Positions 51,201 through 54,200 of a stretch of DNA of 64,000 nucleotides are shown here, one piece after another. The DNA comes from Lepisosteus oculatus (taxonomy: Eukaryota; Chordata; Actinopteri; Semionotiformes; Lepisosteidae): positions 43,776,979 to 43,840,978 of the forward strand of contig NC_090704.1 in NCBI RefSeq assembly GCF_040954835.1, written 5' to 3'. The notes below the pieces were generated by a model. It made no database searches. It saw only the letters and a list, made by a program, of their open reading frames with translations, and was not told the DNA's origin. Made by a program: the position numbers and the translations under genes. The stretch's first letter is position 1. Each line of letters begins with the position of its first letter.

Positions 51201-54200
51201 ACATTTTTTTTTCCTCGCAAATTAAATCACTGATGAGGCTGCTGTTTTTTTTTCTTTACAAAAAGCATATGAACTGTGTGATACTGTCTCGAAGGTTTTA
51301 CACAGTGCAACTTCAGCTACTAATAAAACAGCTATATTGGAAAATGCGCAATACAATTGTGAACTGGCAGACTTCCAGACGGGCTGGGTGAACGTAGCCT
51401 TTGGTCTGTGCAAGACTAGGGAGCTCGAATGTGTCCTCCTTCCCTGTGAATGCATCTAAAAACCATACAACTGAACCCCTACCAGTACCCATGTGAACAA
51501 CCTTGTGCTTTTCTATCCGTGAAACCTGCAGTGCGAGGTGTTCCTAGGTCAGAAAGAAATCCCAGAGGCACCTTTCCAGCATGGCCAGGTCTTTTGAATC
51601 ACTGTGCACTTAATTCACTGTCCGGGCAATAAGGTCAATACTTTAAATAAAAGCCAACTGATGAACCCCATTTACTTTAACTTTGAAAACTAATGTTTTA
51701 GAATAACAGCTTCATTTTCGCTCAATACTAGGACAGGCAGTACTAGCACTCCAGCGATGCATTAAAAAGTTTTAAAAAATGATCACAAGTTCTAAAAGTA
51801 GAAATAGACTATAAAAATACATCAAAATGTCCCTTTCATGCTACTCGCTCTGTATTTTAGAGGAATAAAATCCAGTTGCCAAAATTGTTTCACTTACTTT
51901 TCACACATCTTAGTTCTGCACACTCTTGATTGCCAGACCTTTGGTAAATTTAAGATCTACGATCCATATGCAAAGGTTCTATGTGAATTTAATACAATTC
52001 CCAGAAAAATAAAATGCAGCTAATAGTTAATAAGGCTAATAAAGGACAAGAATTCTCTATACTGTATATTAGGTAGCAGAAGTACATTCAGTTTATACTG
52101 GAACCTATATGAAGTTGACTTAACTGATTAACTGCTAAGATTTCTGCTAAACGTTTTTTTATCCAGCATTAATCAAGTTATCAGGCAAGATGGCATAACA
52201 TTTGGATAAAAACAACCCTTTCCCTGATTCCAGCCTAAATTCATTCAAATTCCAAAATCTGCACAACACCCTGAATTGTAATTTTTCCAAGACACGTGAT
52301 GCTATCCTACTGATACTGTTTCACCATTCAAATGGATTTCTCTTAAACGTGCTTTTAGAGCATTCACTATCAAAATCTATCTGCACCCTTCTAGGAAAAC
52401 CCCTCTTAAGTTGTCTGGATGAACAAAAATGGAAGTTAGAGAAGAGTTCATTTGGATTTCAAGAGAACAAGCTTTATATTGTTTTCAGGCTAAATGGATA
52501 TGCCAAGCAAGGCCCAACAATTCTCCTTTAAAAACCCCTCCTTGCACACATGAATAATAACAAAACTCTTGCATCACGATAAACATCCTCTGACATTAAA
52601 ACAAGCCACTGAAACCAAAGGCTGGCATCTACCAAGAAGCCTTCTCCAATTTGCCTGTCCACCTCGACAATCCAACTTGAAAACTGTAAATAGTTAAAAC
52701 TATTTTGTGCTAAACAAAAGCAAAAAGAAAGAAATTTCATTTCTGATATCATGTTAGAAACTAGCAAAACAGCTCTAACCTCTAATTGAGTTTTTTTTCC
52801 CCTCTGGGATGGAATTACTTGGTCTATAAGGTTGTCCATAAAAATCACTGCTAAAATATCTTGTAACCAGTGCAAATGGCTCTGGTAGTACTTAAGCTAC
52901 AAATAAATTCTAACAAAGCTGAAATCATAGCTTATGAACAGCATTGCTGAAAGGTATCATTAATTTATTTTGTTAGTAGTAATGCATTAATTTCATGCAA
53001 GGCTAGAAGCGATGAGTGCTTCTGAAAGTACACAATGCGGTCCTAAGCAAAGACCTACAGCATCGTATACATTCACCTGGAGGATCATGAAGACTAGAAA
53101 TATTGTCATAGAAAGAGGCTCTTTGAATATTCTGAATCTCTACAGCAGAGAAACAGAGAGAGAGAGGAAAACAAAATAGGGAAAAATAAAAAGGGAACAA
53201 TAGAGCAAACACAGAAAAACACTCTGGTTAGTACTGCATGTGACTAGAAAGGAAATCACAAATTATCCAAGTTTAGACGAGCAGAAAATTTCATGCACAT
53301 TGAAACATTATTAAATTACTGTTGGTATACACAGAGTTTCAAGAGGAAAGTAGCACTAGTATTCTTGTGCACTGGGTGAAAACAGATGTTCTCCAAACAT
53401 GACTATTTTCAAATTGTTTTACAAACGTTTTACAGCTTTAAAGTCTCCAAGAAAACAAACGTCCAACAGAACTGGATAACCACCACCACATCATTTAAAT
53501 CATTTTTGCTACTATGTTTATCTGCTGTTTTAATACGAGCTAAATGCTCACAAAATGTAAGGAATTTCCAGTTCCGAATGTTCCATGGAAAGGAAAAAAA
53601 AAACAGAACCTAAAAAAACTCCAAAAGGTTTATGTATTAGGGGATATTTTGGGTCTTTAAATCATTTAAAAGGGGAAATTTGATGCAAAACAAAACCAAG
53701 CTGACTCAACCAAAGTGCAGAATGTGTAACGCTAATGAACAATGACCATGCGTCAAAACATCTCCACTACACCACGCTGCCAATCCCAGAAATCAGTAAT
53801 CCATTTTCTGCATTCAGAAGTGCTCATGTCTGAATTTGATTCAGAATTCAGAACGGCGAGAACAGCTACCACACGCTACAGCTTGATCCTCTCAGATGAA
53901 ACCCATGTGCACATTCAAGTTATTATTACATCCATGTTTAAGTGCAAACTTAGTTCTCATTTCATGAATGCGAACCTTTAGTAATACAGGCAACAAAAAG
54001 TGTCAGTCTTGCACTATCATGGGATAGTGCAGCACAGTGGATCTGGTGGAAAAGTGAGGAATTACTTAAGCAGCTGGAGAGAATCTCCTGTGTGTGAGGC
54101 AAAATACCCCCCATGTGCTAGTTAATCATGCTGTGCACTATTAATGGATAAATAAACATCTCAACTCAGTGTACAGAAGGCATACAGTAGGAATTAGTCC

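What the first reader, a model, noticed from the sequence alone, without database searches (positions are those of the whole stretch)
53077..53139. A B2-type neuronal cassette exon of MYH10 is present in this fish-like genome
The 63-nt exon keeps phase with both neighbours, has good splice sites and encodes a 21-residue insert in loop 2 at the same place and of the same length as mammalian B2. The core ([15 protein letters not shown]) appears strongly kept, while 5 kb of flanking intron is not recognisably conserved. This suggests the alternative motor form predates the split of ray-finned fishes and tetrapods.
Basis: partly seen in the sequence, partly recalled or inferred. Interest (0 to 1): 0.75.

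Follow-up and report, generated by a model that had tools for sequence, protein, structure and literature searches.

The report
Ancient brain-type myosin exon in fish
A small optional piece of the cell-motor gene MYH10, which in mammals is used in nerve cells, is intact in what looks like a ray-finned fish, and two sister genes in the same fish carry related pieces, so the piece is probably older than the split between these genes.

Summary
Window 53139-53077 (-) is an intact 63-nt, phase-1 exon ([21 protein letters not shown]) in the loop-2 intron of MYH10; the gene is MYH10 by PDB comparison and tree. I found no mammalian B2 sequence in the sources held, so I tested homology with the published mouse MYH9 A2 insert. 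Of 78,477 stop-free 21-mers in the window and three other myosin loci of the same genome, the three best matches to A2 are this exon and one exon each in the MYH9 and MYH14 genes, all in the same intron and starting in the same phase. The MYH9 exon shares 16 of 21 residues with mouse A2. None was found in MYH11. The genome encodes isotocin, by recall a ray-finned marker. Neuronal, alternative use in this fish is inferred from mammals; no RNA was available. CU-rich acceptors at all three exons and a TGCATG about 78 nt downstream of the MYH10 exon fit PTB/RbFox control, unproven. A known kind of exon with a deeper history than I found described.

The parts
53077..53139 (-). B2-type loop-2 cassette exon of MYH10, 63 nt, phase 1, [21 protein letters not shown]
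54945..55059 (-). upstream constitutive exon ([10 protein letters not shown]...VAELWKD + G)
49154..49347 (-). downstream constitutive exon (TG + DRIVGLDQV...IPNHEKR)
53140..53220 (-). 3' splice site with long CU-rich tract: 84% pyrimidine and 4 CTCTCT in the 80 nt before the exon
53068..53079 (-). donor CAG|GTGAATGT, no +5 G
52994..52999 (-). TGCATG (RbFox-type motif) about 78 nt downstream of the exon; function inferred
53292..53297 (-). TGCATG about 157 nt upstream of the exon; function inferred

Best explanation
The feature is the loop-2 cassette exon of MYH10 (B2 type). Skipped, MYH10 makes the ordinary nonmuscle myosin IIB; included, 21 residues enter the actin-binding loop 2 between D621 and V622, which by analogy with mammalian B2 and A2 gives a motor that joins filaments and holds actin but hardly moves it. 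Inclusion is probably restricted to neurons: the CU-rich acceptor would let a PTB-type repressor hold the exon back elsewhere, and RbFox at the downstream TGCATG would favour it in neurons. It is one of three homologous exons (MYH9 A2, MYH10 B2, MYH14 C2) that descend from one cassette present before these genes split; MYH11 lost it. Shown: exon, frames, homology to A2, homologous exons in MYH9 and MYH14 of the same genome. Inferred: tissue regulation, motor effect, loss in MYH11, and the date.
For: Exact exon with both frames open. MYH10 1052 bits against MYH9 967, MYH11 919, MYH14 873; tree places the gene with human MYH10. Best of 46,938 21-mers of the window against mouse A2. The top three of 78,477 21-mers over four loci are the exons in MYH9 (score 88), MYH10 (37) and MYH14 (30), next 26, all in the loop-2 intron and phase 1. 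Pyrimidine of 79-84% over 80 nt at 3 of 3 cassette acceptors against 1 of 40 other acceptors. Published: A2 is brain-specific, B2 and C2 neuronal, A2 and B2 motors nearly inactive.
Against: No RNA evidence in this fish. B2 of mammals was not compared directly. TGCATG occurs 4 times in this 5.6-kb intron and lies on both sides of the exon, and the MYH9 and MYH14 exons do not share the downstream placement (GCATG at +328 only and at -100 only). 5 of 40 other acceptors also have two or more CTCTCT. The whole-genome search with the 21 residues found only the window copy. The MYH14 match is weaker (6 of 21 residues) and its exon end is my choice; mammalian C2 is 99 nt. Tree support is modest: 84 and 74 for the MYH10 and MYH9 pairs, 69 and 46 for the deeper splits.
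Confidence: 0.85

Rival explanations
1. The exon is real and ancestral, but in this fish it is constitutive, or used in tissues other than neurons, so 'neuronal' is wrong.
For: No expression data exist here; mouse A2 mRNA is also seen in skeletal muscle.
Against: A2, B2 and C2 are reported as brain or neuronal inserts in mammals; the skipped form is also in frame and is the form in the PDB chains matched.
Confidence: 0.1
2. The exon is a relic: still open and recognisable, but no longer spliced in this fish.
For: No RNA evidence; only one genome could be examined.
Against: Open frame, AG and GT in place, correct phase, long pyrimidine tract; the sister exon in MYH9 keeps 16 of 21 residues of mouse A2.
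Confidence: 0.04
3. A2-, B2- and C2-type exons arose separately after the genes split, or moved between genes, rather than from one ancestral cassette.
For: The MYH14 exon is only 6 of 21 identical to the others, with 2-3 of 100,000 shuffles reaching the score against the fish A2 and B2 exons; lengths differ; MYH11 has none.
Against: Same intron, same phase, and E.Q..QRA.FY.....LH shared by MYH9 and MYH10 exons (10 of 21, 40 of 63 nt).
Confidence: 0.1
4. Chance open stretch between AG and GT.
For: 8 open, phase-compatible 63-nt stretches occur in this intron.
Against: Only this one matches the published A2 insert, first of 46,938.
Confidence: 0.005

Closest known systems
B2 exon of mammalian MYH10 (NMHC II-B)
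   Same: Gene, loop-2 intron, 63 nt, 21 residues (lengths from PMC13158602 and PMC10480317)
   Different: Residues not compared (no mammalian B2 sequence found here); neuronal use not shown in this fish
A2 exon of mouse MYH9 (PMC10480317, PMC13158602)
   Same: 63 nt, starts with the second base of GAG, 9 of 21 residues shared
   Different: Other gene; mouse A2 has no UGCAUG in its introns according to PMC13158602, the window exon has one on each side
C2 exon of mammalian MYH14
   Same: Loop-2 cassette of the third nonmuscle paralogue; a homologous exon lies in the MYH14 intron of this genome
   Different: 99 nt in mammals, about 69 nt inferred here; C2 motors are active without light-chain phosphorylation, unlike B2

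Membership tests
MYH10 gene | Motor domain closest to MYH10 among the four nonmuscle/smooth paralogues | tested here: met
   1052 bits against 967, 919 and 873; pairs with human MYH10 at 84 ultrafast bootstrap
MYH10 gene | Neighbours RNF222 and NDEL1 (order recalled from human 17p13.1) | tested here: inconclusive
   RING-finger ORF at 7809-8510 (-); coiled-coil exons resembling NDEL1 by recall at about 18.5-21.4 kb (+); neither compared with the named human protein
B2-type loop-2 cassette exon | 63 nt, 21 residues, in frame when skipped | tested here: met
B2-type loop-2 cassette exon | Lies in the loop-2 intron, phase 1 (G|AG) | tested here: met
   A2 start described the same way in PMC10480317
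B2-type loop-2 cassette exon | Sequence homology to a published loop-2 insert | tested here: met
   9 of 21 with mouse A2, best of 46,938
B2-type loop-2 cassette exon | Sequence identity to mammalian B2 | not testable with these tools
   no B2 sequence found in papers or PDB
B2-type loop-2 cassette exon | Alternative, neuron-specific inclusion | not testable with these tools
   no RNA data
B2-type loop-2 cassette exon | Insert silences the motor | not testable with these tools
   published for mammals only
RbFox-regulated exon | UGCAUG in the downstream intron near the donor | tested here: inconclusive
   TGCATG at about +78 but also at about -157; 4 copies in 5.6 kb

The most novel reading that the evidence does not exclude
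One loop-2 'motor brake' cassette existed in the single ancestral nonmuscle/smooth myosin II gene before the early vertebrate genome duplications, was kept with its CU-rich splice context in MYH9, MYH10 and MYH14 for about half a billion years, and was lost in MYH11. A2, B2 and C2 are then one exon, with C2 later lengthened and turned to another biochemical effect.
Probability: 0.78. Interest if true: 0.5.

Novelty: new member of a known kind. Interest (0 to 1): 0.42.

Why it matters
A2 of MYH9 was described only in 2023, and the parts of the papers that I read treat A2, B2 and C2 as inserts at a shared place without dating them. Finding homologous exons in MYH9, MYH10 and MYH14 of one fish genome, all detectable with a single mouse peptide, suggests one origin and very long retention of a switch that mutes a motor. 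It predicts a matching exon in lamprey and perhaps amphioxus, and names residues (E.Q..QRA.FY.....LH) worth testing in the motor.

Tried and rejected
Rejected: chance exon; wrong paralogue, i.e. MYH9 A2 misread as MYH10. Dropped: a weak donor as a special mark of the cassette, because 15 of 47 other donors picked in the four genes also lack +5 G, four of these being the same minor-class-like intron.

Led nowhere: peptide search of papers for a B2 sequence (0 papers); PDB search with the insert and short flanks (0 hits up to E 10); two papers on B2 and C2 not held; whole-genome protein search with the 21 residues, which found only the window copy and so was too insensitive to show the paralogous exons; PDB scores alone did not place the C26 gene (MYH10 782, MYH9 758, MYH14 751 bits), the tree did. 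No structure was modelled.

Weak points: at least 4 of the 40 'other acceptor' rows used a nearby AG that is probably not the real acceptor (MYH9 three, MYH11 one); they stayed in the count. Donors were likewise taken as the nearest GT. The MYH9, MYH11 and MYH14 protein strings lack some exons (assembly gaps or exons not read), and some junction residues were left out or not verified. Bootstraps are ultrafast bootstraps, for which 84, 74, 69 and 46 are modest.

Full report
1. The exon. On the minus strand the window reads ...CTCTCTCTGTTTCTCTGCTGTAG|AGATTCAGAATATTCAAAGAGCCTCTTTCTATGACAATATTTCTAGTCTTCATGATCCTCCAG|GTGAAT... at 53139-53077. The exon is entered after one base of a codon (G|AG) and left after one base (G|TG), so it can be skipped or included without breaking frame. 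Spliced in, it gives ...[36 protein letters not shown]...; both forms are open. An open frame is no proof: 8 of 25 AG..GT stretches of 63 nt in this intron are open and phase-compatible.

2. The gene. Eleven motor-domain exons of the window, joined without the insert (475 aa), score 1052 bits against human MYH10 in the PDB, 967 against MYH9, at most 919 against MYH11 and 873 against MYH14. The insert falls between D621 and V622 in PDB 4pd3 numbering.

3. Independent test of homology. I found no mammalian B2 sequence. PMC10480317 (outline, introduction, first Results section, antibody section, Discussion and passages read) prints the mouse MYH9 A2 insert, EMQSTQRAYFYRRFPILHLES, from a 63-nt exon that starts with the second base of GAG and is expressed in brain, with mRNA also in skeletal muscle. 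The window exon has 9 of 21 identical residues (E.Q..QRA.FY.....LH) and ranks first among 46,938 stop-free 21-mers of the window (score 37, next 26); 0 of 200,000 shuffles reach it.

4. The same genome. The window lies in a 1.20-Gb assembly of 813 contigs. A search with the two loop-2 flanking exons gave 13 matches; 8 belong to four genes and 5 are more distant or partial; the tool calls such counts lower bounds. By tree the four genes pair with MYH10 (C9, ultrafast bootstrap 84), MYH9 (C12, 74), MYH11 (C19, 95) and MYH14 (C26, 93); the deeper grouping ((MYH10,MYH14),(MYH9,MYH11)) has only 69 and 46. In the MYH9 intron a 63-nt exon at C12:39734003-39733941 encodes EVQSCQRAYFYQRFPILHLQP, 16 of 21 identical to mouse A2. 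In the MYH14 intron an exon starting at C26:424401 encodes DIQSLPRVYFFDSYAALQPNG(SD), 69 nt if the in-phase donor ACA|GTAGGT is right. The MYH11 intron, about 340 bp, has no match. Over the window and these three loci together, the three best of 78,477 stop-free 21-mers against mouse A2 are exactly these three exons (88, 37, 30; next 26). The flanking exons meet the intron in phase 1 in all four genes. The fish MYH9 and MYH10 exons share 10 of 21 residues and 40 of 63 nt.

5. What this says about age. The genome encodes isotocin (CYISNCPIG), vasotocin (CYIQNCPRG) and a third peptide, CFISNCPLG; that isotocin marks ray-finned fishes is recalled. One MYH9-type gene was found, whereas zebrafish has myh9a and myh9b after the teleost duplication (PMC11708221, passages), so this is probably a ray-finned fish outside the teleosts; a gar-like fish is my guess. 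Because MYH9 and MYH14 carry homologous exons in the same intron and phase, the simplest history is one cassette before these genes split (by recall, the early vertebrate genome duplications) with loss in MYH11. PMC10480317 compares human A2, B2 and C2 and says that splicing at this place is conserved among NM II members. Its main text holds no word beginning with 'ancest' or 'duplicat', and two further searches (listings only) showed no paper about such a dating; the library holds open-licence papers only, so it may be in print elsewhere.

6. How it probably works. Published: A2 and B2 motors have low actin-activated ATPase and almost no gliding, A2 co-assembles with the plain form and slows it, and loss of B2 disturbs Purkinje cells (PMC10480317; PMC11335295 and PMC3535348, passages). 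PMC13158602 (outline, part 1 of 2 of Results, Discussion, in-silico section, passages) reports RbFox acting at the weak donor of A2 and no UGCAUG there, and calls the donors of B2 and C2 optimal. Here, 3 of 3 cassette acceptors have at least 79% pyrimidine over 80 nt, against 1 of 40 other acceptors in these genes; 3 of 3 have two or more CTCTCT, against 5 of 40. The MYH10 exon has TGCATG at about +78 and -157; within 600 nt the MYH9 exon has GCATG only at +328 and the MYH14 exon only at -100. I therefore propose PTB-type repression outside neurons and RbFox-helped inclusion in neurons for the MYH10 exon. This is inference from motifs; the PTB and RbFox rules are recalled, and the placement is not shared by the sister exons. 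The insert lengthens loop 2 ahead of its lysines and carries a small net negative charge, which would fit weaker actin activation; also inference.

7. Verdict. Real, correctly read, ordinary in kind (a B2-type exon in another vertebrate), with a stronger result than claimed: homologous cassettes in three paralogues of one genome and therefore probably one origin before they split. Neuronal alternative use in this fish remains to be shown.

Noticed in passing
L021 (G000:C9:43846537-43846508, -), about 5.5 kb beyond the window's end at 64000: A 30-nt phase-0 exon PESPKPVKLQ in the loop-1 intron of MYH10 (B1/N30 type; resemblance to mammalian B1 recalled) with a GC donor (GCAAGT) and TGCATG about 45 nt downstream.
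   Followed up: partly
intron after GANIET in MYH10 (window, about 62.8 kb), MYH9 (L016), MYH11 (L015) and MYH14 (L025): In all four genes this intron begins GTATCC, and near its end lies CCTTGAC, TCTTGAC or CCTTAAC: it looks like a conserved minor-class (U12-type) intron; consensus recalled.
   Followed up: no
G000:C8:17751399-17751680 (L009): A more distant (44%) sarcomeric-like myosin heavy chain lies in one open frame of 1961 aa, as if the gene had no introns.
   Followed up: no
window 24486-25430 (-): Open 315-aa Tc1-type transposase frame (Pfam HTH_Tnp_Tc3_2 and DDE_3).
   Followed up: partly
window 5180-5300 (-): 5S rRNA-like match just above the Rfam cut-off (40.5 against 38 bits), perhaps a 5S-derived SINE.
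   Followed up: no
L023 and L020 (G000:C3, about 74.72 Mb): Besides isotocin and vasotocin, a third neurohypophysial gene near the isotocin gene encodes CFISNCPLG, an unusual nonapeptide.
   Followed up: no
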